In this document: positions 30,010-49,772 of the stretch, piece after piece
How the letters are laid out: each line of letters opens with the position of its first letter
Numbering within the stretch: position 1 is the stretch's first letter
Source: Bdellovibrio bacteriovorus
Lineage (GTDB): Bacteria > Bdellovibrionota > Bdellovibrionia > Bdellovibrionales > Bdellovibrionaceae
NCBI RefSeq assembly: GCF_001592735.1
Contig: NZ_LUKE01000001.1
Coordinates: 434,001 to 498,000, forward strand
DNA length: 64,000 bases
Direction of reading: 5' to 3'
Program-made: the position numbers and the translations under genes
The notes under the pieces: generated by a model
Database searches by the model: none
Told to the model about the DNA's origin: nothing
What the model saw: the letters and a program-made list of their open reading frames with translations, nothing else

Positions 30010-30408
30010 TTATTTTTGGAATTTAGCTTTCAAGAAGACCCAGGCATCGGTACACCAAAGGGCCCAGGCCACCAAGACAGGTTGAAAGAAAAGACGAATC
30101 AAGCGAGAAGTATCCGAATTCAACCCAAAGGCATCAATCCGATAAACATACTGATTAATATTCCCGGGAAAAATAGCAATAAAGAACAAAGCCCCCACAA
30201 TACCCACATAAATTTTGTATTTAGTCAGAAACAAGAAACTAAGCCCTAACAAAATCTCAACAATCCCCGAAGCCACAACAACAAAATCCGGATCCAAAGG
30301 CTGCCACACCGGAACTTGAGCCAAAAACTCTGCCCGAGCAAAAGTAAGGTGGCTAACCCCCGCAAAAACCAAAAAGGAACCCATCAACAACCGCAAAAAC
30401 AATTTCAT
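30010..30408 (-). CDS. DoxX-family membrane protein
   Basis: A 132-residue inner-membrane protein with four hydrophobic segments. The DoxX-type features are FAGVSHLTFAR near the start, VVASGIVEILLGLSFLF, and IAIFPGNINQYV. ATG 30408 has GGGGGA upstream. The function of the family is unclear; some members are linked to thiol or oxidative stress. It may form an operon with the efflux genes downstream. Confidence 0.8.
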   Translation of the reverse strand: MKLFLRLLMGSFLVFAGVSHLTFARAEFLAQVPVWQPLDPDFVVVASGIVEILLGLSFLFLTKYKIYVGIVGALFFIAIFPGNINQYVYRIDAFGLNSDTSRLIRLFFQPVLVAWALWCTDAWVFLKAKFQK

Positions 30409-38118: not shown

Positions 38119-39120
38119 TTAAACCCACTTTTGCGTTAACGCGACCTGACCGGTTCCTTTTTTGATGGCACCCAGCTTCCAAGCCTTCACGTTTTTGTCT
38201 TTTAAAAAGCTTAAAACACTTTCAGCGTCTTGTTTTTTCACTAAGACCGTCAATCCAATACCCATATTGAAGGTACGGAAAAGTTCCTCTTGCGGAATAT
38301 CTAAACGACTGACGATGGGTTTAAATACCGGCGCAATTTCAGTGGATGGCGGCCAAGAACTCAAATCGTAATCAAAGGCTTCGCTCATGCGTGGGATGTT
38401 ATCAATCCCCCCGCCCGTCATGTGTGCCGCCGCCAAGATGCTTCCTTGAAATTTTTTGCGCAATTGCGTGAATACTTCGACGTAAATTTTTGTCGGCACC
38501 AAAAGTTGCTCCATCAGCTCCTTTTCGTCGTCTTTCACAAGCTTTCTTAAAAGAGAGTACCCGTTAGAATGAAAACCGCTCGAGGCAATACCAATCATCA
38601 CATCACCTTCGGTCATATTCTTTTCACTGAACATGTCTTTAGGATCAAGGTCACCCACACTGAAACCGGCAAGGTCGTATTCTCCGTCTTGGTAAACGCC
38701 CGGCATCTCTGCCGTCTCGCCACCAACCAAAGCCATTCCCGATTGTTTACAACCGTCCACCATGCCGGCGATCAGCTCTTCACTGACGCGCGTGTCGAGT
38801 TTTCCAAAGGCCATGTAATCTAAAAAAAACAAAGGCTTCGCACCTACACACAAAAGATCATTCACACACATCGCGACAAGATCAATCCCGATGCCGTGGT
38901 GTTTGTTCAACTTCTGACCCAGCTTTAACTTTGTTCCCACACCATCGGTGCAAGCGGCGATGTATTTTTCTTCATTCAACTTGTAAACGGAAGCAAATCC
39001 GCCAATACCGTCTAAGACATTTTCATTAAATGTCGTCGGCACAAGATTTTTGATTCGCTCCACAAAGGCATCCGCCTTGTGAACATCGACGCCGGCTTCT
39101 TTGTAGTCAATTTTTGACAT
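38119..39120 (-). CDS. purM: Phosphoribosylformylglycinamidine cyclo-ligase (AIR synthetase)
   Basis: A 333-residue enzyme closing the imidazole ring (FGAM to AIR, ATP-dependent). The family blocks are DGVGTKLKLGQ, AMCVNDLLCVGAKPLFFLDY, LVGGETAEMPG and HMTGGGIDNIPR. It is the last gene of the pur operon, 52 bases after purH. The length is normal. Confidence 0.96.
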   Translation of the reverse strand: MSKIDYKEAGVDVHKADAFVERIKNLVPTTFNENVLDGIGGFASVYKLNEEKYIAACTDGVGTKLKLGQKLNKHHGIGIDLVAMCVNDLLCVGAKPLFFLDYMAFGKLDTRVSEELIAGMVDGCKQSGMALVGGETAEMPGVYQDGEYDLAGFSVGDLDPKDMFSEKNMTEGDVMIGIASSGFHSNGYSLLRKLVKDDEKELMEQLLVPTKIYVEVFTQLRKKFQGSILAAAHMTGGGIDNIPRMSEAFDYDLSSWPPSTEIAPVFKPIVSRLDIPQEELFRTFNMGIGLTVLVKKQDAESVLSFLKDKNVKAWKLGAIKKGTGQVALTQKWV

Positions 39121-39172
39121 TTTTCTCTCCAGTTAAAAAAACCTAGGTAAATACTTTCTTCCTTCTTTAAAA

Positions 39173-40693
39173 CTAATGAAGGAAGTGACGTCGGCCCGTG
39201 AATAGCATCGAAATACCCAGTTTATCTGCTTCCGCAATCACGTCATTATCTTTCACCGAGCCACCGGGCTGAATGATGCACTTGACCCCTAATTTGGCAG
39301 CCACTTGCACAGAATCTGGGAATGGGAAAAAGGCGTCCGACGCCAAGACCACCTCTGAAACATCTTTGATTCCTTTGTCAGTGAGTCTTGAAGTGATCAG
39401 CTTTTCAATACAATCCACGCGATTGGTTTGGCCTGATCCCATCGTCATAAGGTCAAACTCCGGGCCCTCTTGTCGAGCCAAGGCGATGGCGTTGCTTTTT
39501 AGATTTTTCACCGCAAGCATTGCAAAACTTGCTAAGCGTTTTTTATCTTCGCTCACCGGATTTTTAGTGACGACTTTGGTGTTTGAAAGATCAAACGTAT
39601 CAGCCTCTTGCACCAACCAGCCGCCCTCAATCGAGCGGACTTGCCACGCCGGTTCTGATTTCAACTTCACTTCCATGATACGACAGTTCTTTTTTAGCTT
39701 TTCCTTGGCTTTTTCATCAAATGACGGTGCTAAAATCACTTCGACAAATTTGTCAGTGAAAAACGCCGCGACTTCTTCTGTTACGGGGAAATTCAGCGCG
39801 ATGATTCCCCCGAAAGAGCTTTTCTCGTCCCCTTTCCAGGCTTTTTCTAAGGCGCGGATCGGGGTTTCACCGATCGCCAGGCCGCAAGGCGTATTATGTT
39901 TCACAACAACTGCCGTCGGCAGACTTTTAGTCCCTTGCCATTGATGCACATCTTGCAAAGTTTTAAGAGCGAAATCCGCATCCAGGTAGTTATTGTAAGA
40001 CATCTCTTTACCTTGAAGGGATTTGGCGTGTGCCAGGCCTTCTTGGAAAGGATCTTTCATCACAAAGGCTTTTTGGTGCGGGTTTTCACCGTATCTTAAA
40101 GATTCACCCGTGCTTTGAGTTAAGTAAGACGCGATCGCTTGATCATAAAAAGCCGTCATCGTGTAAACTTGCGACGCACATTTTTGGCGGAACTCTAAAC
40201 TCGTCTCACCTTTGTTTTCTTGGAATTCTTTGATAAAAGTGCCGTATTGTTCGGGATTACACAAAACCGTGACAGAACGGAAGTTTTTCGCCCCGGCTCT
40301 TAGCAACGTCGGTCCGCCGATATCAATGTTTTCGATACATTCAGCAAAGCTTGAATTCTTTTTTAAAGTTTCATGGAATGGGTACAAATTCACTACTACC
40401 AAATCAATGGGGCTGATACCCAAATCTTTTGCTTGTTTGATATCGGAAGGGTCTTCGCGGCGATACAAAAGACTTGAAGCGATCTCAAAGCTGATAGTTT
40501 TCATGCGACCTTGAAAGGCCTCACCTTTACCGCTTAACGTTTCAACGGCGGTCACTTTGTAACCGGCTTGTTCTAAAGATTTAGCCGTGCCACCACTGGC
40601 GATCAATTCAACATTTTGTGCGGCTAAAACTTTTGCTAAATCTAATAAACCCGTTTTATCAGATACGCTTAATAAAGCTCTTTTAATAGTCAT
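39173..40693 (-). CDS. purH: Bifunctional AICAR transformylase/IMP cyclohydrolase
   Basis: A 506-residue enzyme for the last two steps to IMP. The N-terminal IMP cyclohydrolase domain (about 1-190) has SVSDKTGL and GRMKT. The C-terminal AICAR transformylase domain has RYGENPHQKA and the catalytic VVKHNTPCG. Its ATG overlaps the purQ stop (ATGA). Confidence 0.96.
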   Translation of the reverse strand: MTIKRALLSVSDKTGLLDLAKVLAAQNVELIASGGTAKSLEQAGYKVTAVETLSGKGEAFQGRMKTISFEIASSLLYRREDPSDIKQAKDLGISPIDLVVVNLYPFHETLKKNSSFAECIENIDIGGPTLLRAGAKNFRSVTVLCNPEQYGTFIKEFQENKGETSLEFRQKCASQVYTMTAFYDQAIASYLTQSTGESLRYGENPHQKAFVMKDPFQEGLAHAKSLQGKEMSYNNYLDADFALKTLQDVHQWQGTKSLPTAVVVKHNTPCGLAIGETPIRALEKAWKGDEKSSFGGIIALNFPVTEEVAAFFTDKFVEVILAPSFDEKAKEKLKKNCRIMEVKLKSEPAWQVRSIEGGWLVQEADTFDLSNTKVVTKNPVSEDKKRLASFAMLAVKNLKSNAIALARQEGPEFDLMTMGSGQTNRVDCIEKLITSRLTDKGIKDVSEVVLASDAFFPFPDSVQVAAKLGVKCIIQPGGSVKDNDVIAEADKLGISMLFTGRRHFLH

Positions 40694-41439
40694 GGCTGAG
40701 TCCTTAAGTAAGTCACTGCATTTTTAAAAAATTCTAAGCCGTAAGCCGTGCCTTCAAATGGCAAGTGCCAATCGTGCAAAGCGGCCTCGGGATGAGGCAT
40801 CAATGCGAACACCAAACCTGAAGGATCACAGACGCCGGCGATTTGCGCTTGCGCGCCATTGACGTCTTCTTTGTATTTCAAAACGGCTTGGTTATTTTGG
40901 ATAAGTCGCTTTAACAAGCTTTCTTCTTTACAGACAAAGCGTCCTTCCCCGTGGCGCATCGGTAAAACAAATTCTTTCGGAAGATTCTTCGTCCAGATAC
41001 ACGGAGATTTTTCATCGCGCTCCACCGTCACCCATTGGTCAATGAAATGACCTTGGCGGTTTTTTACTAAGGCACAAGTGCGATTGAAATCGGCGTCGGG
41101 CAAGAGACCTAGACGAATCATGGTCTGAAAGCCATTGCAGATTCCCAGGACGGGACGAGTTTTTACGAATTCTTGTAATTCGCTTTTTAAGACGTTTTCT
41201 AATTTAAGCGAAAGAATCTGACCGCTGCCCAGGTGATCGCCGAATGAAAATCCTCCCGGAAACACCATGGCTTGATATTCGTGAAGACTTTTAGGATTTT
41301 TTAAAAGCTCATTGACGTGAACCTTTTTCGCGGATCCCCCTGCAAGCTCGATAGCGCGGGCCGTTTCATTTTCACAGTTAATGCCATCACCCCAAAGGAC
41401 TAAGAACTTGGGAGCTGTTTGGTTAGGCTTCGTAGACAT
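40690..41439 (-). CDS. purQ: FGAM synthase glutamine amidotransferase subunit
   Basis: A 249-residue class-I glutaminase giving ammonia to PurL. The nucleophile Cys lies in VLGICNGFQTM and the His-Glu pair in MPHPEAALHD; GGFSFGDHLGSG is the PurQ signature. It overlaps the purL end by 17 bases. PurQ being separate explains the lack of a glutaminase domain in the long PurL. Confidence 0.95.
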   Translation of the reverse strand: MSTKPNQTAPKFLVLWGDGINCENETARAIELAGGSAKKVHVNELLKNPKSLHEYQAMVFPGGFSFGDHLGSGQILSLKLENVLKSELQEFVKTRPVLGICNGFQTMIRLGLLPDADFNRTCALVKNRQGHFIDQWVTVERDEKSPCIWTKNLPKEFVLPMRHGEGRFVCKEESLLKRLIQNNQAVLKYKEDVNGAQAQIAGVCDPSGLVFALMPHPEAALHDWHLPFEGTAYGLEFFKNAVTYLRTQP

Positions 41440-44400
41440 TTAAAACTCCCTTAGACCAGATGTTTTGCAAGTTTGCGGTCGGAACTGTTTGCGTGCTCCC
41501 GCCGAACGACCATTTCATTTGGCCATCTGCCGTTGTTGTTCCGACATGTTTTGCGGCCTTTGCAAAATGCGCTTCAAAATCCTTTTTCTTTTCAGTCGGC
41601 ACGCTGACCACAAAGACCGAGCCCGTTTCAGACCAAAGCTGATTCCACGTGAGGTCGTTCAAATTTAAGTTTGCGCCTAAGGCGTTACCAAAACAAGATT
41701 CCGCCAAGGCCCCCATCAATCCCCCCTCGGAGAGATCGTGGCACGAAGACATAAGTTCTTGGCGATGCGCTTGGAAGATTTTTTTGTAAAGATCGTTGTT
41801 GGCTTTTAAGTTTGGATATTCAGGGGCCTCTTCGTTAACGACAAATTCTTGCGCCAAAGTCGAAGCATAAAGACTGCTCGTCAGCTGACCTAAGATATAT
41901 ATTTCCTCCCCGGCTTTTCGGAAGAATCCAGGGCATGTTTTATTGGCCTCAGGAATTTGACCTATCGCCGTCACTAACAGTGTTGGCGGGACTGAGATTT
42001 TAACCGTTTCGCCGGATTTAGTTTTTCCGATGAAATCATTTTTCATGCTGTCTTTACCGCTGACAAAGGGAGCCCGGAAGCTTTGCGCAGCATCGTAAAG
42101 ACCTTCACACGCGCGCACTAACTGCGCCATTTTGTGATGAGCATCGGGGTTGCTTGATTTTTCAATTGGATCCGGCCAACAGAAATTATCACAAAGTGCT
42201 ACTTTTTCTGGGTTCGCCCCGGTCGCCACCAGATTACGAATCGCCTCATCGACAGATTTTTGCGCCATCAAGTAAGTGTCATAATATGAAAACTGAGGGC
42301 ACAGACCATTGGATACGGCGACGGCGTTGTTTTCTTCCCCTCCGTGGACCGATAAATCAATCACACCGGCATCGTTAGCCCCTTGTTGAGTTTTACCACC
42401 ATAAGGTTTTAAGCGCGTGGCCCCTTGAACTTCGTGATCGTAATATCTCACGATCGGTTCACGGGACGCCACGTTGGGTGAAGCCAAAACTTTTTCTAAT
42501 GCTTTTTGCACACCTTCCGCCGTCGGGGCTGGGGCGGGCGTTTTTGCGGTTTCTCGATAAAACTCTTGGTATTTTTTCGGACCTTCAAAGTGAGCTTTGA
42601 TCTTCATGCGGCTTAAACCCTCATGAAGGAAGTGTAAATTCAAAGTCGCCAGGGGTGTCGCCCCATGCACGACTTCGAAGTTTCCGCTATTGGTAAATTC
42701 CCCAAGGACACTCGCTTCAACACCCATGTCTTGAGCCAATTGCAAAAACGGACTGATGTTATTTGGAGTCACCGCATAGGACATACGTTCTTGCGATTCA
42801 CTGATCAGCATTTCCCAAAATTCTAAGTTAGAATATTTAAGTGGATGCTTGCTTAAATCCATCCGTGCGCCGCCAGAGTATTGCGACATTTCCCCGATCG
42901 AAGAGCTCACACCGCCTGCGCCATTATCCGTGATTGCTTGGATCAAACCGCGATCGCGTGCTTGCAATGTGAAGTCTAATAAACGCTTTTGCGTGATGCT
43001 GTCCCCGATTTGTACGACGTTGGAAGCGACGTGGTCATGCAAGGCCAGCGAACTGAACGTCGCGCCGTGAACCCCGTCTTTACCTAAGCGGCCCCCGGCA
43101 ACGACAATCAAATCACCGGGGTTGATTTCTTTAACTTCCGAATGACGGTTTTGGACTTTTTTAGGCATGATTCCTAAAGAGCCCACGAATATTAACGGCT
43201 TTGCCGCAAACTCACTGGCAAAATAAAAACTGCCATTCACCGTTGGAATACCACTTTGATTTCCGCCCTCTTCCACACCCTGATGAACCCCGCGGAAGAT
43301 CACGCCGGGGTCCTTTAAAAGTTCAGGACGTTTTAGGGACTCTGCGGGAGGAAAAAGTTCTTTTTTAGAAAGACAGAACACATCCATATTGGCGATAGGC
43401 TTAGCACCTAATCCACAACCTAAGATGTCGCGATTAACTCCCAAGATCCCCGTGATGGCCCCACCAAAAGGATCTAGCGCCGAAGGACTGTTATGCGTTT
43501 CTACTTTCACGCAGACATTAATATTTTTATCAAAATCAACGATCCCGGCATTGTCTTTAAAAACAGAAACCAAGTATCCACAGTCCTGCAGATCTTTGGT
43601 CGCTTTTTGAATATAGCTTTTATAAAGACTGGTGACTTTTTTATTCCCAATCGCGGGGTAATCGCCTTGAGATTCTGAATACTCGACTTCGGCGGCAAAG
43701 ATCTTGTGCTTACAGTGCTCACTCCAAGTTTGGGCTAGACACTCTAATTCGACCTCAGTGACTTTGTTAGCCCACCCTTGGGCTTCACGGCTTTTTACGA
43801 CCTCGGGGCTTGAAAAGTGGTTGATGATGGTTTGAATTTCCTCATCACTTAAAGCCAGGCCGCGCTCTGAATTTATTTTTTGCAAGACATCGGTCTTAAG
43901 ATCAAAAAGCAAAAGCTTTCGGTCTGAGATGGCGGGCGAATCCCAGAAATGGCCAAAGTTTTTCCAAAGACTGATGGTGTTTTGTTCAGATCCTCGCGCC
44001 ACATCGACTTTATTTAAAAGCGGATTGGCCAAAGACTGAAATAACACTTTTTCGATTTGTTTTTGATTAAAATCCCCGTGGATTTCAAGTTCCCACCCGC
44101 TGTGAGCTTCAATACCGAACTCTTGCCAAGAAGTATTATGTTGCGGTGAAAAGAGCATCAAAGCTTCGGTGGCTGAACGCGCGATATTGTCCGTCACCCC
44201 AGCTAAGAAACGAACTTCCACGTAGGTGGCGTCGGCGCGGAATTCTGGCAGGCCATGTTTGATTTCTTCGGCCACGGGATCAAAGAAAATACGATCCATT
44301 AAAGTGTCGAGCTTGATTTCTTTGGCAAAGCCTGGTGTTTTTTCTAAGAGCCAATAGACACGGCGAAGTTTTAAATCCGTGATCGGGGCTTCTTTAGCAA

Positions 44401-44464
44401 AAGATTTTTTGAGGCTCTCTTCAGCGCTATGGTCATAAAGACTGCGAACGGAAATTCTTTGCAT
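41423..44464 (-). CDS. purL: FGAM synthase, intermediate-length PurL without glutaminase
   Basis: A 1013-residue synthetase converting FGAR to FGAM. Two AIR-synthetase-like halves are seen, with SEHCKHKIF, KVETHNSPSALDPFGGA and, later, FVSGKDSMKND. About 200 extra N-terminal residues include a PurS-like region, so this is neither the ~740-residue small PurL nor the ~1300-residue large PurL with a glutaminase. It works with the separate PurQ; no purS gene is visible. The start overlaps the purN stop. Confidence 0.94.
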   Translation of the reverse strand: MQRISVRSLYDHSAEESLKKSFAKEAPITDLKLRRVYWLLEKTPGFAKEIKLDTLMDRIFFDPVAEEIKHGLPEFRADATYVEVRFLAGVTDNIARSATEALMLFSPQHNTSWQEFGIEAHSGWELEIHGDFNQKQIEKVLFQSLANPLLNKVDVARGSEQNTISLWKNFGHFWDSPAISDRKLLLFDLKTDVLQKINSERGLALSDEEIQTIINHFSSPEVVKSREAQGWANKVTEVELECLAQTWSEHCKHKIFAAEVEYSESQGDYPAIGNKKVTSLYKSYIQKATKDLQDCGYLVSVFKDNAGIVDFDKNINVCVKVETHNSPSALDPFGGAITGILGVNRDILGCGLGAKPIANMDVFCLSKKELFPPAESLKRPELLKDPGVIFRGVHQGVEEGGNQSGIPTVNGSFYFASEFAAKPLIFVGSLGIMPKKVQNRHSEVKEINPGDLIVVAGGRLGKDGVHGATFSSLALHDHVASNVVQIGDSITQKRLLDFTLQARDRGLIQAITDNGAGGVSSSIGEMSQYSGGARMDLSKHPLKYSNLEFWEMLISESQERMSYAVTPNNISPFLQLAQDMGVEASVLGEFTNSGNFEVVHGATPLATLNLHFLHEGLSRMKIKAHFEGPKKYQEFYRETAKTPAPAPTAEGVQKALEKVLASPNVASREPIVRYYDHEVQGATRLKPYGGKTQQGANDAGVIDLSVHGGEENNAVAVSNGLCPQFSYYDTYLMAQKSVDEAIRNLVATGANPEKVALCDNFCWPDPIEKSSNPDAHHKMAQLVRACEGLYDAAQSFRAPFVSGKDSMKNDFIGKTKSGETVKISVPPTLLVTAIGQIPEANKTCPGFFRKAGEEIYILGQLTSSLYASTLAQEFVVNEEAPEYPNLKANNDLYKKIFQAHRQELMSSCHDLSEGGLMGALAESCFGNALGANLNLNDLTWNQLWSETGSVFVVSVPTEKKKDFEAHFAKAAKHVGTTTADGQMKWSFGGSTQTVPTANLQNIWSKGVLNVYEA

Positions 44465-45078
44465 TAGGGATTCTCCTCAAAATAGACCGTGGACTGCTGG
44501 CCGGTTGAAAGGCTGTCCAAAAAATCAGTATAAATACGATGTTCAAGTTGGTGCATACGTGCACCCAGCTGCTCCAGGGATTCGGCAGCATGGATCGCCA
44601 ATGGTTCTTGGCGAATCACGGCCCCAGTGTCCATGCCTTCATCGACAAAATGGATTGTGATCCCCGTATGGGACACTTTGTCGTTATAAGCGCGCGCGAT
44701 CGAATCAACGCCGGGATACGCGGGTAAGAGCGAGGGATGGATGTTCACGATTTGGCTTTTACCTTGATGCCAGCTTGCAAACTTCGCTAAGAAGTCTGCC
44801 GAAATCAAGCGCATATAGCCCGCCAGCAAGATCCAATCCACTTTGTGCTCTTTTAAGAGTTTTAAAATTTCAGCCTCATGGGTGGCTTTATCTTGTTTTT
44901 TTTCTACTAAATAGGTGCGCACCCCTTCATTTTGAGCCTTCGCTAAAACAGGGGCCGTGGCTTTGTCCGACAAAACAAATGAGATCTCTAACTGCGACAG
45001 CGTCTTAGATTTTTGAATCAAAGCCATGGCGTTTGAACCCGTTCCTGAAGCAAAAATAGCGACCTTCACAGGTTTCAC
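44464..45078 (-). CDS. purN: Phosphoribosylglycinamide formyltransferase
   Basis: A 204-residue folate-dependent GAR transformylase. FASGTGSNA near the start binds the phosphate. The catalytic Asn-His-Asp set is represented by LAGYMRLIS, NIHPSLLPAYPG and THFVDEGMDTG-like HFVDEGMDTGAVI. It overlaps purD by four bases. Confidence 0.95.
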   Translation of the reverse strand: MKPVKVAIFASGTGSNAMALIQKSKTLSQLEISFVLSDKATAPVLAKAQNEGVRTYLVEKKQDKATHEAEILKLLKEHKVDWILLAGYMRLISADFLAKFASWHQGKSQIVNIHPSLLPAYPGVDSIARAYNDKVSHTGITIHFVDEGMDTGAVIRQEPLAIHAAESLEQLGARMHQLEHRIYTDFLDSLSTGQQSTVYFEENP

Positions 45079-46313
45079 AGTCCGATGTCCTCTCTGAAGT
45101 ACATGCCTTCATAAGAGACCTTTTTTAAATCTTCATACGCTTGCTTGCGCGCTTCTTCTTTGGAGGCCGCTAACGCCGTCATTCCTAAAACTCGTCCGCC
45201 GGTATTAACGATCTGCCCGGCTTTTTCGCCAACACCGGCAAAGTAAAGTCGAGACTTTGTTTCTTGGGTCGGGTATGTCACGGGATTTCCCAAAATCATT
45301 TGGCTTTGTGGATATCCTTGGCTCACCGCCACGACGTGAACCGACGTCAATGACGAAAGTTCACACGTTTGATTTTTGAGTTCGTGTTGTACTGCCGCGG
45401 TGATGATTTTTACTAAATCACTTTTTAATCGCGGCATCAGGCTTTGGGTCTCTGGATCACCCATGCGAACATTGTATTCCAAAACGTAAAGCCCTTTCGC
45501 CGTTTTCATCAAACCCGCAAATAAAAAGCCCTGAAAGGGTGTTCCTTGAGATGAGAGATAATTTAAAGTCTTTGCGAAGGTTTCGTGGATGGTTTTATCA
45601 TCTTCAGCAGAAATAAAGTCACAAGGACTGTAAGCCCCCATGCCCCCGGTGTTGGCACTAAAAGGGTCTGGGGTGATTCGTTTGTAATCACAGGCTGTTC
45701 CCAAAACGACAAAGTCCTTGCCATCGCAAAGTGCAAAGGCGGAAAGCTCTTTACCTATAAGACATTCTTCAATTAACAGTGGATATCCGTATTGAGACCC
45801 CAACACGTCCACGGCCTCTTCGGCCTTAGCTAAGCTTTCACAAACCCAGACACCTTTGCCGGCGGCAAGGCCATCGGCTTTCACCACGATCGGGCTAGAA
45901 AAATCATGAGCGTGGATTTCTTTTAAAGCGTCCTCGTTATTTTGGGCCAAACTCCAGTGCGCGGTCAGCACGCCGGATTTTTCTAAGACCTCTTTGCAAA
46001 AGGCTTTCGATGATTCCAGTTTGGCAACATTCGGCGTGGGAGCAAAGACAGGAACGTTTTTAGATTCTAAACGAGATTTTAAATCTGAAAGAATCGCAGC
46101 CTCGGGCCCCACCACGACAAGAGACACCTTGTTTTCAAGACAAAATGCCTCAATATCCGCCGGTGATTCAACAGGGGCGCATTGGATTCCCATTTTTTGC
46201 ATTCCGGGATTCCCTGGGCACACCCAAAGCTCACTCACCTCAGAGGACTCGCGCAGCTTGGCGGCTAGCGCATGTTCACGTCCCCCTTTACCTACTACCA
46301 CAACCTTTTTCAT
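45075..46313 (-). CDS. purD: Phosphoribosylamine-glycine ligase
   Basis: A 412-residue ATP-grasp enzyme making GAR. Visible are GKGGREHALAAKL, VVGPEAAI, VVKADGLAAGKGV and EYNVRMGDPETQ. It lies directly next to purC (no gap). The length is normal. Confidence 0.96.
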   Translation of the reverse strand: MKKVVVVGKGGREHALAAKLRESSEVSELWVCPGNPGMQKMGIQCAPVESPADIEAFCLENKVSLVVVGPEAAILSDLKSRLESKNVPVFAPTPNVAKLESSKAFCKEVLEKSGVLTAHWSLAQNNEDALKEIHAHDFSSPIVVKADGLAAGKGVWVCESLAKAEEAVDVLGSQYGYPLLIEECLIGKELSAFALCDGKDFVVLGTACDYKRITPDPFSANTGGMGAYSPCDFISAEDDKTIHETFAKTLNYLSSQGTPFQGFLFAGLMKTAKGLYVLEYNVRMGDPETQSLMPRLKSDLVKIITAAVQHELKNQTCELSSLTSVHVVAVSQGYPQSQMILGNPVTYPTQETKSRLYFAGVGEKAGQIVNTGGRVLGMTALAASKEEARKQAYEDLKKVSYEGMYFREDIGL

Positions 46314-47345
46314 TTAGTTTCCTAAAATTTCTTGGGCCTTTTCATGCCAACGCTTTAAAGTCATCTCTTCCGCAAATGGCTTTTTACGACCGACAACGCT
46401 CGCGACCTCATTAGCTAAGGCTTGATACAACAACGCACTGACTTCGATTTGTTGCGCAGAGAGTTTTTTGGGAACTTCTTTAAGCTCATCTTTACAGATG
46501 GATTTCCAATCTTGAGTTTTTCTTTCGGCCGCCAACTCTTTAGACTTTTTCACGGCATCGCTCCAAGACGTATTGCCGTAAAGCTGACGCAAAAATTCTT
46601 TAGACAGTGGCAAACCTTCGTAAGTTAAACGCAATTCATCAGGACCAATAGAATCAACCAGTAAAAGCTCACGATCCCCGTCAGCCTTTTTCTTACCGAA
46701 CGCGTATTCAACTTTTCCGTCCCACAGTTTCACGCCGAAAGATTGAAAAAGCTTTTCAAGCTCTACCACGATTTCTTGTGTTTGCGCGCGCAGGGCTTTT
46801 TGTTCGCCTTCAGACACGATGTTCATGTCCGCGATTTCTTTTTTGGTTAAATAGCGATCGGACGTTTCAAGTTTGGTTGAAAATTCGACCAAGGCAGGAT
46901 CAAAGGTCGTTGCACCCGACGGAACTTCTTTAAGACCAAGATCCGCCAAATAGGCCGGATTCTTTTTTAAACGACCTTCAAGAGAGTTTCCTTGTCCCAA
47001 GTGTTTGCGAAAGATCACTTCTAATGGCACTAAAGCCTCTGTCGGGCGATCTTGGTACATCGAATAGTCGTACTGACCTTCAATGAAATGCGGGCGTAAA
47101 ACCTTAACGGCTTTTACTTCAATGGTATTTGGATTTACTGTTCCCACGAAGTGAGAAGGAATGCCTTTTTTTGCCAAGTGTTCAAAAAAAGACGCCGCCA
47201 TGGAAGCCAAGGCCTCGCCCTTGTGAGGGATTTCGTCTGGCATTTCGCCCCAATCAAAAATGGAATAGCGATTGCTGTATTTGAACACCAACTTGTTACC
47301 GTCTTTATAAAGATCTTTAACTGAACCTGTATAGACTAGTTCCAT
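46314..47345 (-). CDS. purC: SAICAR synthetase
   Basis: A 343-residue enzyme joining CAIR and aspartate. ATG 47345 (MELVYTGSVKDLYK) has AGGGA upstream; an in-frame start 33 bases further up is less likely. GSVKDLY, SIFDWGEMPDEIP and LVDSIGPDELRL are the family blocks. It is longer than the ~240-residue E. coli form and closer to the ~300-residue type. It overlaps the purE end by 10 bases. Confidence 0.93.
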   Translation of the reverse strand: MELVYTGSVKDLYKDGNKLVFKYSNRYSIFDWGEMPDEIPHKGEALASMAASFFEHLAKKGIPSHFVGTVNPNTIEVKAVKVLRPHFIEGQYDYSMYQDRPTEALVPLEVIFRKHLGQGNSLEGRLKKNPAYLADLGLKEVPSGATTFDPALVEFSTKLETSDRYLTKKEIADMNIVSEGEQKALRAQTQEIVVELEKLFQSFGVKLWDGKVEYAFGKKKADGDRELLLVDSIGPDELRLTYEGLPLSKEFLRQLYGNTSWSDAVKKSKELAAERKTQDWKSICKDELKEVPKKLSAQQIEVSALLYQALANEVASVVGRKKPFAEEMTLKRWHEKAQEILGN

Positions 47346-48055
47346 GCTGTTTTCCCTGTTTCTACTAGTTTTTTCCACTGAATTACAAAGTTACCGATGT
47401 TGTTAGCACCGACCCACGCACCACCTGCTTTGGCTTTCGTGAAGAAGTCCAAAGCCAATTGAGAATTGGCCAACTGTTCTTTTTCACAAAGGAACAAGTT
47501 TAAGCCAGAAGATTGTGGCAATTCCCAAGGGCTGACGATTTCACCGAAACATTTTGCATCTTTCACGTCGGTCCATTCCACCGCCGCGCCACTTTGAGTT
47601 TGGATGTCTTCAATCGCTTTTTGAATTGGCGAATAAGATTCCAGATTTTTATTCCAGTGAAGATGGATTTTATCACTAGGAATGTTTTTCCAACGGATCA
47701 GCATATCAGCAATTGAATTGGCGTTTTCTTCGGTCACGCAAGCCACCGGAACACCTTTAGGCATTTGCACCACTGAAAGAAAGGCGTCTAATCCCGCGAA
47801 GGCCCCATTTACGGAAATTCCAAAAACGGGTTTTTGAGTCAAAGAGGCTACCACACCTGGAAGATGGGCTGCTAAGCCTGCACCCGCCACGAACACATCA
47901 GCTCCGCAAGTCGTGACGATTTCACGAACACGGTCGGGATTTCTGTGTGCCGAAGCCACTTCCATGGTCACCGGGCCACATTTTTCCAAAGATCGACATA
48001 AGGGACCATAAACTCTTTCATCACTTGCGCTACCAAAAAGCACTTGAATCTTCAT
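47336..48055 (-). CDS. purE: PurE (N5-CAIR mutase or AIR carboxylase) with C-terminal extension
   Basis: A 239-residue protein. Residues about 1-150 are a PurE domain: FGSASDERV, VASAHRNPDRV and GLAAHLPGVVA. Residues about 150-239 form an extra domain ending in GGAWVGANNIGNFVIQW that standard ~160-residue PurE lacks. No purK is visible, so whether this is the PurK-dependent mutase or a direct AIR carboxylase is open. The start overlaps the purF stop by four bases. Confidence 0.88.
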   Translation of the reverse strand: MKIQVLFGSASDERVYGPLCRSLEKCGPVTMEVASAHRNPDRVREIVTTCGADVFVAGAGLAAHLPGVVASLTQKPVFGISVNGAFAGLDAFLSVVQMPKGVPVACVTEENANSIADMLIRWKNIPSDKIHLHWNKNLESYSPIQKAIEDIQTQSGAAVEWTDVKDAKCFGEIVSPWELPQSSGLNLFLCEKEQLANSQLALDFFTKAKAGGAWVGANNIGNFVIQWKKLVETGKTAWN

Positions 48056-49509
48056 AGAGGGACCTCACTTTTTCCGTCTCCACCGGTATTGTGTTTACGG
48101 GTTTTTAAAAAATCTTCTGTTGATACTGGAACTGGATATTCGCCGTCTAGACAAGCACTGCACAGGTCTTGCAACCCGATGCCTTCTTTCAGACGATTTA
48201 AAGGTAAATAGACTAAAGCGTCGACCGTAAGCGCTTTAGCAATCTCATCTTCCGTGCGTTGATACGCCACCAAGGATTCCCCGTCCGGGAAATCAATGCC
48301 ATAAAAACAGGGGTGACGAATTGGCGGACAGGTGCTCGCTAAATAAACTTTTTCGGCCCCGGCGTCTCTTAAAAGTTGAATGATACGTGCGGACGTCGTG
48401 CCGCGCACAATGCTGTCATCGACTAGCAAAATCTTTTTCCCGCGGATTTCACTTTCCACAGGGGAAAGTTTTAAGTTCACCATCATCTTACGCAGCTCTG
48501 GCGAGTTGATAATAAAACTTCTTTGCACGTAACGGTTTTTAATTAAAACTTCACGGTAAGGCTTTTCTAAAACTTCGGCTAAACGACATGCGGCCGCGCG
48601 GGAAGTATCTGGCACAGGTGCCACCACATCAACATCTAAGCCCTTTTTCTGAACCTCTTCGGCTAAGATTTGTCCTAGGTTTAAACGCGTTTCATACACC
48701 GGCCGACCATGCCATTCGGTTTCGGAGCCGGCGAAATAAATCCATTCAAACATGCAAGGCCGGGCTTTTTTCTGACTTAAGTTGAACGAATGAAAATTGA
48801 GATCTTTATCGATAAACGCAAGCTCACCGGGGCCCAAATCTCTCCAAAATTCAAAACCCAGACCAAAAAAGACCTGTTTTTCAGAGGCAAAACAGTAGCT
48901 GTATTTATCGCCATTTTTTTTGCGACCGATCAACATCGGACGAATCCCGTGCGAATCACAAAAAGCAAAAAGACCTTGCTCGGCAAGCATTCCGACGGCG
49001 CTGTAAGCTCCTTGGACTTTCTCTAAAAGTTCTTGAACGGAAGCGGCAAGGTTTTTAGGAAGATCGGGGCTGTCTTTACGGGAAGCTAAGCCCACGGCTG
49101 TCATGTGCATCAAAATTTCTAAGTCATTGCGACTGAAAGTCCAACGCTGCTTGCGATCGCGTAAGTAACTCACAACTTCGTCATAATTGGTGACGTTGCC
49201 GTTATGGATCATGCCCATGCCATAAGGATAACTGAGGAACAATGGCTGCAAGTCTTCCTTATCGACGGTTCCAATGGTTGAATAGCGCGTGTGACCAATC
49301 GCCATGGAGCCTTTAAGGCGCTGTTGCCTTTCAGGCGTGAAGACGTCTTCAACCAATCCCAAATCTTTTTCTAAGTGGAACTGCGATCGTTCAAAGTCAT
49401 AGCTTAAAATTCCTGCGGCATCTTGACCCCGATGCTGAAGCGCAAATAATGCGGGATAAAGCTTTTCACCGGCCTTGGATTCACCAATCAGCCCCACTAC
49501 ACCACACAT
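48052..49509 (-). CDS. purF: Amidophosphoribosyltransferase
   Basis: A 485-residue enzyme, first committed step from PRPP and glutamine. The N-terminus MCGVVGLIGE exposes Cys2 as glutaminase nucleophile, with no propeptide. LQHRGQDAAGI and the PRPP loop LLVDDSIVRGTTS follow. Cysteines in RPCMFEWIYF, RHPCFYGID and LCSACLDGEYP match the iron-sulfur ligands of the B. subtilis type, so a 4Fe-4S cluster is likely. It is the first gene of the pur operon, behind a long leader. Confidence 0.95.
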   Translation of the reverse strand: MCGVVGLIGESKAGEKLYPALFALQHRGQDAAGILSYDFERSQFHLEKDLGLVEDVFTPERQQRLKGSMAIGHTRYSTIGTVDKEDLQPLFLSYPYGMGMIHNGNVTNYDEVVSYLRDRKQRWTFSRNDLEILMHMTAVGLASRKDSPDLPKNLAASVQELLEKVQGAYSAVGMLAEQGLFAFCDSHGIRPMLIGRKKNGDKYSYCFASEKQVFFGLGFEFWRDLGPGELAFIDKDLNFHSFNLSQKKARPCMFEWIYFAGSETEWHGRPVYETRLNLGQILAEEVQKKGLDVDVVAPVPDTSRAAACRLAEVLEKPYREVLIKNRYVQRSFIINSPELRKMMVNLKLSPVESEIRGKKILLVDDSIVRGTTSARIIQLLRDAGAEKVYLASTCPPIRHPCFYGIDFPDGESLVAYQRTEDEIAKALTVDALVYLPLNRLKEGIGLQDLCSACLDGEYPVPVSTEDFLKTRKHNTGGDGKSEVPL

Positions 49510-49533
49510 AAGCGACCCGCCTTTAAAAAAACA

Positions 49534-49556
49534 AACGGCGTCGAAGGGACGCCGTT
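49534..49556 (-). terminator. Attenuator-type terminator right before purF
   Basis: On the minus strand AACGGCGTC and GACGCCGTT form a 9-bp stem with a CCTTC loop, followed by TTGTTTTTTT. It ends 15 bases before the purF AUG and just upstream of its ribosome-binding site, so it must be read through for the pur operon to be made. Confidence 0.85.
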
Positions 49557-49715
49557 ATTTAGAAGATTCAAATTTTTGAAACACTTTGGGTGAGAGGACA
49601 CACGTGGGGTGTCAGACCAGTGGCTGCCTGCCCCCGAGGGCGGCCTAAAGAGCGATTTCTTCTTAGAGAATAAAACCAGAGCCATTGTCTCTCTTTTTCA
49701 ATATGTTTTCGGAAT
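49557..49715 (-). promoter_or_regulatory. Structured purF leader, candidate riboswitch or attenuation element
   Basis: From the predicted transcription start to the terminator the leader is about 160 bases. AGAAGA (49658-49663) can pair with TCTTCT (49561-49566), closing a domain with GCCC-TCGG-GGGC and GACAC/GTGTC stems; it ends four bases before the terminator stem. It does not match the purine or PRPP riboswitch cores I know. A 62-codon frame (49497-49685) crosses it. Confidence 0.5.
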
Positions 49716-49721
49716 GAGTAA

Positions 49722-49750
49722 AACTAACGACGATGACAGAGTTTGGTCAA
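49722..49750 (-). promoter_or_regulatory. Likely pur operon promoter
   Basis: TTGACC (49745-49750), 17 bases, then TTAGTT (49722-49727) on the minus strand. The -35 is good and the -10 weak, fitting a regulated promoter. Confidence 0.5.
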
Positions 49751-49753
49751 GGT

Positions 49754-49772
49754 TCCTGACATAATCCTGACA
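49754..49772. repeat. Direct repeat TCCTGACA upstream of the pur promoter
   Basis: Two exact copies (49754-49761 and 49765-49772), 11 bases apart, one helical turn, ending four bases from the -35 box. It is a candidate regulator site. Confidence 0.5.

What the first reader, a model, noticed from the sequence alone, without database searches (positions are those of the whole stretch)
49510..49772. Structured purF leader with terminator: candidate purine riboswitch of new type
Seen: a promoter with two TCCTGACA repeats at -35 minus 4, a ~160-base folded leader closed by AGAAGA/TCTTCT, then a strong terminator 15 bases before purF of a nine-gene operon. Known: purine operons are often attenuated by purine or PRPP riboswitches. 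It lacks those conserved cores. Inference: a leader RNA sensing a purine-pathway metabolite, or a protein- or translation-controlled attenuator.
Basis: partly seen in the sequence, partly recalled or inferred. Interest (0 to 1): 0.6.

Follow-up and report, generated by a model that had tools for sequence, protein, structure and literature searches.

The report
Translated attenuator before Bdellovibrio purine operon
The stretch before the purine-making genes of this predatory bacterium is not a folded riboswitch but most likely a tiny translated gene that runs straight through a transcription stop signal, so that a ribosome can switch the stop signal off, and its promoter carries the same DNA box as the phosphate-starvation regulator genes.

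Summary
The promoter, its two direct repeats, the strong terminator just before purF and the nine-gene pur operon are real. The riboswitch reading is not supported: the leader folds no better than shuffled sequence, the AGAAGA/TCTTCT helix exists only in this genome, and among relatives only the terminator hairpin is conserved.

What is conserved is a coding sequence. In 19 of 20 Bdellovibrio-genus purF leaders an ATG ORF (45-82 codons; here 62, window 49685-49497, minus strand) runs through the terminator and stops within -9 to +22 bases of the purF start. Substitutions concentrate at third codon positions (30/26/61; p = 8e-5), and dN/dS is about 0.2-0.6 in informative pairs. No antiterminator partner was found. 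This is the anatomy of the E. coli pyrBI attenuator, but on a purine operon; an A-rich stretch precedes the hairpin.

The 11-base repeats (TGTYAGGATTnTGTYAGG) match the site upstream of phoU-phoB-phoR in 23 genomes and resemble a PHO box, which implies PhoB control. In B. bacteriovorus, PurF is reported to fall to 0.06-fold inside prey.

Best reading: a ribosome-coupled attenuator under a PHO-box promoter. The signal, and the sign of PhoB control, are untested.

The parts
49755..49772 (-). PHO-box-like operator, two 11-base direct repeats TGTCAGGATTA/TGTCAGG
   Evidence: 20/20 genus purF promoters at fixed spacing; same motif before phoU-phoB-phoR
49745..49750 (-). -35 element TTGACC
   Evidence: sequence, conserved in position
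49721..49726 (-). -10 element TAGTTT, 18-base spacer; start site expected near 49714
   Evidence: sequence and alignment; start site not mapped
49688..49698 (-). purine-rich Shine-Dalgarno-like tract AAAAAGAGAGA
   Evidence: GAGAG-type tract before the leader ATG in most relatives
49497..49685 (-). leader ORF, 62 codons, crosses the terminator and ends 13 bases into purF in another frame
49556..49595 (-). A-rich, G-poor stretch before the terminator
   Evidence: 38% A here, 38-60% in relatives
49524..49556 (-). intrinsic terminator hairpin and U-rich tail
48052..49509 (-). purF
38119..49509 (-). purF-E-C-D-N-L-Q-H-M operon
   Evidence: Pfam for purE, purC and purM; other names by reading the translations

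Best explanation
The purF leader is a transcription attenuator controlled by coupled translation. Shown by sequence: transcription from the promoter gives a short 5' UTR, then a conserved leader ORF, and meets an intrinsic terminator about 44 codons in; the ORF continues through the hairpin to the purF start. Inferred from the pyrBI precedent: if a ribosome follows closely it covers the hairpin sequence, the terminator cannot form and purF to purM is transcribed; if polymerase outruns the ribosome, transcription stops before purF. Further inference: polymerase slowing on the A-rich stretch when ATP is low would let the ribosome catch up, giving feedback by purine supply. Initiation is probably also controlled by PhoB (phosphate supply) at the PHO-box-like repeats; whether PhoB activates or represses is unknown.
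For: An ATG ORF of 45 or more codons crosses the terminator in 19/20 leaders, against 3-24% per leader in shuffled controls. Third-position excess 30/26/61, p = 8e-5, in six non-overlapping species pairs. dN/dS is about 0.2-0.6 in pairs with enough change. The ORF stops at -9 to +22 of purF in all 19. The terminator is kept, with compensatory changes. No upstream segment pairs with either terminator arm better than codon-shuffled controls in 15 leaders tested. The peptide has no Pfam family and no predicted fold (pLDDT 51, pTM 0.15), as expected of a leader peptide. In pyrBI the terminator lies inside a 135-bp leader gene and a following ribosome prevents it (PMC4824070; PMC10135430). PurF (Bd3009) falls to 0.06-fold in prey (PMC12546842), so the gene is strongly regulated. 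PHO-box match.
Against: No transcript or reporter data; the start site is unmapped. One leader (G024) keeps promoter and terminator without an ATG ORF. The A-rich stretch is only modestly enriched in this genome (38% A; 16% of pur coding stretches reach that), and terminators often have A-runs before the stem anyway. Purine shortage would also slow translation (GTP), unlike UTP shortage at pyrBI. Amino acids such as P-x-C and N-L are kept, which a purely mechanical ORF would not require.
Confidence: 0.66

Rival explanations
1. The leader peptide itself is the sensor: a ribosome stalls at a particular codon or nascent-peptide motif (for example the conserved P-x-C or the diproline) and the stall, not polymerase pausing, decides termination.
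For: Amino-acid motifs are conserved beyond what crossing the hairpin needs; 13/19 peptides have a diproline, and a proline stall before the pyrL terminator raises termination in E. coli without EF-P (PMC5021804).
Against: No run of one kind of codon; no antiterminator for a stalled ribosome to release; the diproline is missing in six species.
Confidence: 0.15
2. The ORF is an ordinary small gene, the first of the operon, and the hairpin is an unregulated partial terminator or a brake on excess transcription; real control lies at the promoter (PHO box).
For: Purifying selection on the ORF; fixed promoter architecture with a PHO-box-like operator.
Against: Length varies from 45 to 82 codons, the C-terminus is free to vary, and no fold or family is found; a perfect terminator is kept inside the coding frame in all species.
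Confidence: 0.13
3. A metabolite-binding riboswitch of a new type, as first proposed.
For: Terminator before a purine operon; a small GC-rich stem is partly conserved.
Confidence: 0.04

Closest known systems
E. coli pyrBI (pyrL) attenuator
   Same: Intrinsic terminator inside a leader peptide gene directly before the first enzyme gene; no antiterminator needed; nucleotide-synthesis operon; similar distance from ORF start to terminator.
   Different: Purine rather than pyrimidine operon; leader unrelated in sequence; the tract before the hairpin is A-rich, not U-rich; promoter carries a PHO-box-like operator; NTP dependence untested.
Purine, PRPP and other Rfam riboswitches
   Same: Leader with a terminator before a purine operon.
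   Different: No Rfam match; no aptamer core, no conserved fold, and the leader is coding.
PHO box of PhoB/PhoP (E. coli CTGTCAT, two 11-nt units)
   Same: Two head-to-tail 11-base units with a TGTCA/TGTTA core; same motif before phoU-phoB-phoR and before a second pstS.
   Different: Placed before a purine operon, just upstream of a recognisable -35; binding not tested.
Leader-peptide attenuators of amino-acid operons (trp, his)
   Same: Short ORF and a terminator before the operon.
   Different: No run of control codons and no competing antiterminator; the ORF crosses the terminator.

Membership tests
pyrBI-type ribosome-coupled attenuator | Leader ORF extends through an intrinsic terminator before the first gene | tested here: met
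   19/20 leaders; hairpins
pyrBI-type ribosome-coupled attenuator | The ORF is translated | tested here: inconclusive
   Coding selection is clear (third-position excess p = 8e-5; dN/dS mostly below 0.6), but this is evolutionary evidence, not ribosome data
pyrBI-type ribosome-coupled attenuator | No antiterminator structure required | tested here: met
   No notable pairing with either terminator arm in 15 leaders
pyrBI-type ribosome-coupled attenuator | NTP-specific pausing of RNA polymerase upstream of the hairpin | tested here: inconclusive
   A-rich, G-poor stretch in 20/20; composition only
pyrBI-type ribosome-coupled attenuator | Read-through depends on translation and nucleotide supply | not testable with these tools
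   Needs reporters
Riboswitch (known purine/PRPP types or new) | Conserved aptamer fold or match to a known family | tested here: not met
Riboswitch (known purine/PRPP types or new) | Ligand binding | not testable with these tools
   Needs in-line probing
PHO box (PhoB operator) | Two 11-base direct repeat units | tested here: met
   definition from PMC4415409
PHO box (PhoB operator) | Shared with pho genes of the same organisms | tested here: met
   phoU-phoB-phoR promoters in 23 genomes (G000 locus); second pstS in several genomes, opposite orientation
PHO box (PhoB operator) | Bound by PhoB and responsive to phosphate | not testable with these tools
   Needs gel shift, ChIP or a phoB mutant
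Amino-acid leader-peptide attenuator | Run of control codons and a competing antiterminator | tested here: not met
   ORF sequences; duplex test

The most novel reading that the evidence does not exclude
A purine counterpart of pyrBI: purine-nucleotide-sensitive polymerase slowing on the A-rich tract couples the ribosome to the terminator, while PhoB at the promoter adds phosphate status, so that the predator makes its own purines only outside prey. A purine operon in the PhoB regulon and a purine-type pyrBI attenuator would both be new as far as my limited searches of the open-access literature show.
Probability: 0.28. Interest if true: 0.72.

Novelty: new variant of a known kind. Interest (0 to 1): 0.52.

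Why it matters
Ribosome-occluded terminators are best known from the pyrimidine operons of enteric bacteria; a conserved one on a purine operon in a distant lineage would show that the principle was reached for another nucleotide pathway. It also links purine synthesis to the phosphate regulator in a predator whose PurF is reported to be almost switched off inside prey (PMC12546842), which gives that switch a concrete, testable DNA and RNA target.

Tried and rejected
Rfam at gathering and relaxed thresholds: nothing. Global fold of the leader: not better than shuffles. Antiterminator search by duplex energies against codon-shuffled leaders: none convincing (G015 failed to yield a leader in that script and carries no information). 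Search for the leader peptide elsewhere in 141 genomes of the order: only weak short hits near E 0.005, treated as chance. Pfam on the peptide: no meaningful hit. Matrix from phoU promoters scanned over the window: the purF site ranks second of about 128,000 positions; the first, at 30262 (-), is inside a coding ORF and taken as chance. Other near matches to the repeats in this genome are mostly unexplained single sites. A gap-length comparison of ORF against 5' UTR failed in the script and was not used. The multiple-of-three distance from ATG to hairpin is true by construction and is not counted as evidence. Two reviews on attenuation are not in the library.

Full report
Observation. On the minus strand, 49772-49755 holds TGTCAGGATTATGTCAGG, followed by TTGACC (-35), 18 bases and TAGTTT (-10). 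A nine-pair hairpin with a U-rich tail lies at 49556-49524, 14 bases before purF. The operon reads purF-E-C-D-N-L-Q-H-M (Pfam for E, C and M). The leader occurs once in the genome.

Relatives. The genus has 24 held genomes; contigs that could be matched by length and position to named records are Bdellovibrio sp. or Bdellovibrionaceae. Twenty genus purF leaders could be read. The consensus fold of ten keeps only the terminator, with compensatory changes, and a three-pair stub. Terminator hairpins are seen in all 20 (16 folded, the rest by sequence). The purF upstream regions of other genera in the family that I read lack this leader, and the peptide profile does not find it there.

The leader is coding. 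In 19 of 20 leaders an ATG ORF of 45-82 codons passes through the hairpin and ends at -9 to +22 relative to the purF ATG. The frame was chosen because it crosses the hairpin, so I tested chance: dinucleotide-shuffled leaders give such an ORF in 3-24% of cases per leader. The species are not independent, but several lineages are well diverged. Separately, substitutions before the terminator in six non-overlapping species pairs fall 30/26/61 on codon positions 1/2/3 (p = 8e-5), and dN/dS is about 0.2-0.6 in pairs with enough change; a few very close pairs are near or above 1 with about ten changes or fewer. Amino-acid motifs are kept: N-terminal xQRLF, PPSGGS, LRVS, P-x-C, NL and, at the hairpin, NGVxxTPFLFF. 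A profile of the peptide finds it only in purF leaders of this genus; it has no Pfam family and no predicted fold. The exception, G024, keeps box and terminator but has only a TTG ORF in another frame.

Mechanism. No leader segment pairs with either terminator arm better than codon-shuffled controls, so a switch between terminator and antiterminator has no visible partner. A ribosome translating the ORF would itself cover the hairpin. That is how pyrBI works: its terminator is within the 135-bp leader gene (PMC4824070), and low UTP slows polymerase so that the ribosome prevents the hairpin (PMC10135430). Here the 40 bases before the stem are A-rich (38-60%) and mostly G-poor in all 20, against 28% A in pur coding sequence; this suggests, but does not show, ATP-sensitive slowing. 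Thirteen of 19 peptides carry a diproline, and a proline stall before the pyrL terminator is known to raise termination in E. coli without EF-P (PMC5021804). Steps shown: promoter elements, ORF under coding selection, terminator inside the ORF, lack of an antiterminator. Steps inferred: ribosome occlusion, the signal, the direction of feedback.

Promoter. The repeats are present in 20/20 purF promoters at fixed spacing to -35 and -10. A genome search with the purF motif also returned a site before phoU. In this genome that site heads phoU, a response regulator with receiver and winged-helix domains, and a histidine kinase, near polyphosphate kinase and Ppx-like genes; the names phoB and phoR rest on position and domains. 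All 23 phoU promoters read carry this repeat in the same orientation, with small variations. A matrix built from phoU promoters alone ranks the purF site second in the window. A second pstS in several genomes has the repeats in the opposite orientation, so orientation does not settle activation or repression. PHO boxes are defined as two 11-nt direct repeats (PMC4415409); that review does not mention purines.

Physiology. In B. bacteriovorus HD100 the amidophosphoribosyltransferase Bd3009 drops to 0.06-fold at 2 h in prey (PMC12546842). G003, whose contig length I recall as that of HD100 (from memory), has a single PurF and the full leader. The drop fits both layers of control but does not separate them.

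Verdict. A real regulatory leader, not a riboswitch: most likely a translation-coupled attenuator of pyrBI type under a PHO-box-like promoter, conserved across the genus.

Noticed in passing
G009, G018, G022, G025 (genus relatives): No PurF match in four genus genomes (88-99% complete), suggesting loss of de novo purine synthesis among some of these predators.
   Followed up: no
L170 and L173 (G005:C5:33730, G007:C17:27126): An exact copy of the purF repeat motif, in the orientation seen at the second pstS, upstream of an uncharacterised lipoprotein-like gene in two species.
   Followed up: partly
L203 (G014) and the second pstS of G012, G015, G017, G022, G025: A second pstS with up to three 11-base repeats (YTRACA-N5) in its promoter; the main pstS has a different conserved promoter pattern.
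   Followed up: partly
L041 (G024): purF leader with PHO-like box and terminator but no ATG leader ORF; a possible lineage that lost or rebuilt the attenuator.
   Followed up: no
window 30262 (-): Best match in the window to the phoU-derived matrix (TGTTGAGATTTTGTTAGG) lies inside a coding ORF; probably chance.
   Followed up: yes
L042, L043, L044 (G015, G017, G012): A second hairpin (GTGGCATCA...TGATGCCAC-like) lies between terminator and purF, around the end of the leader ORF.
   Followed up: no
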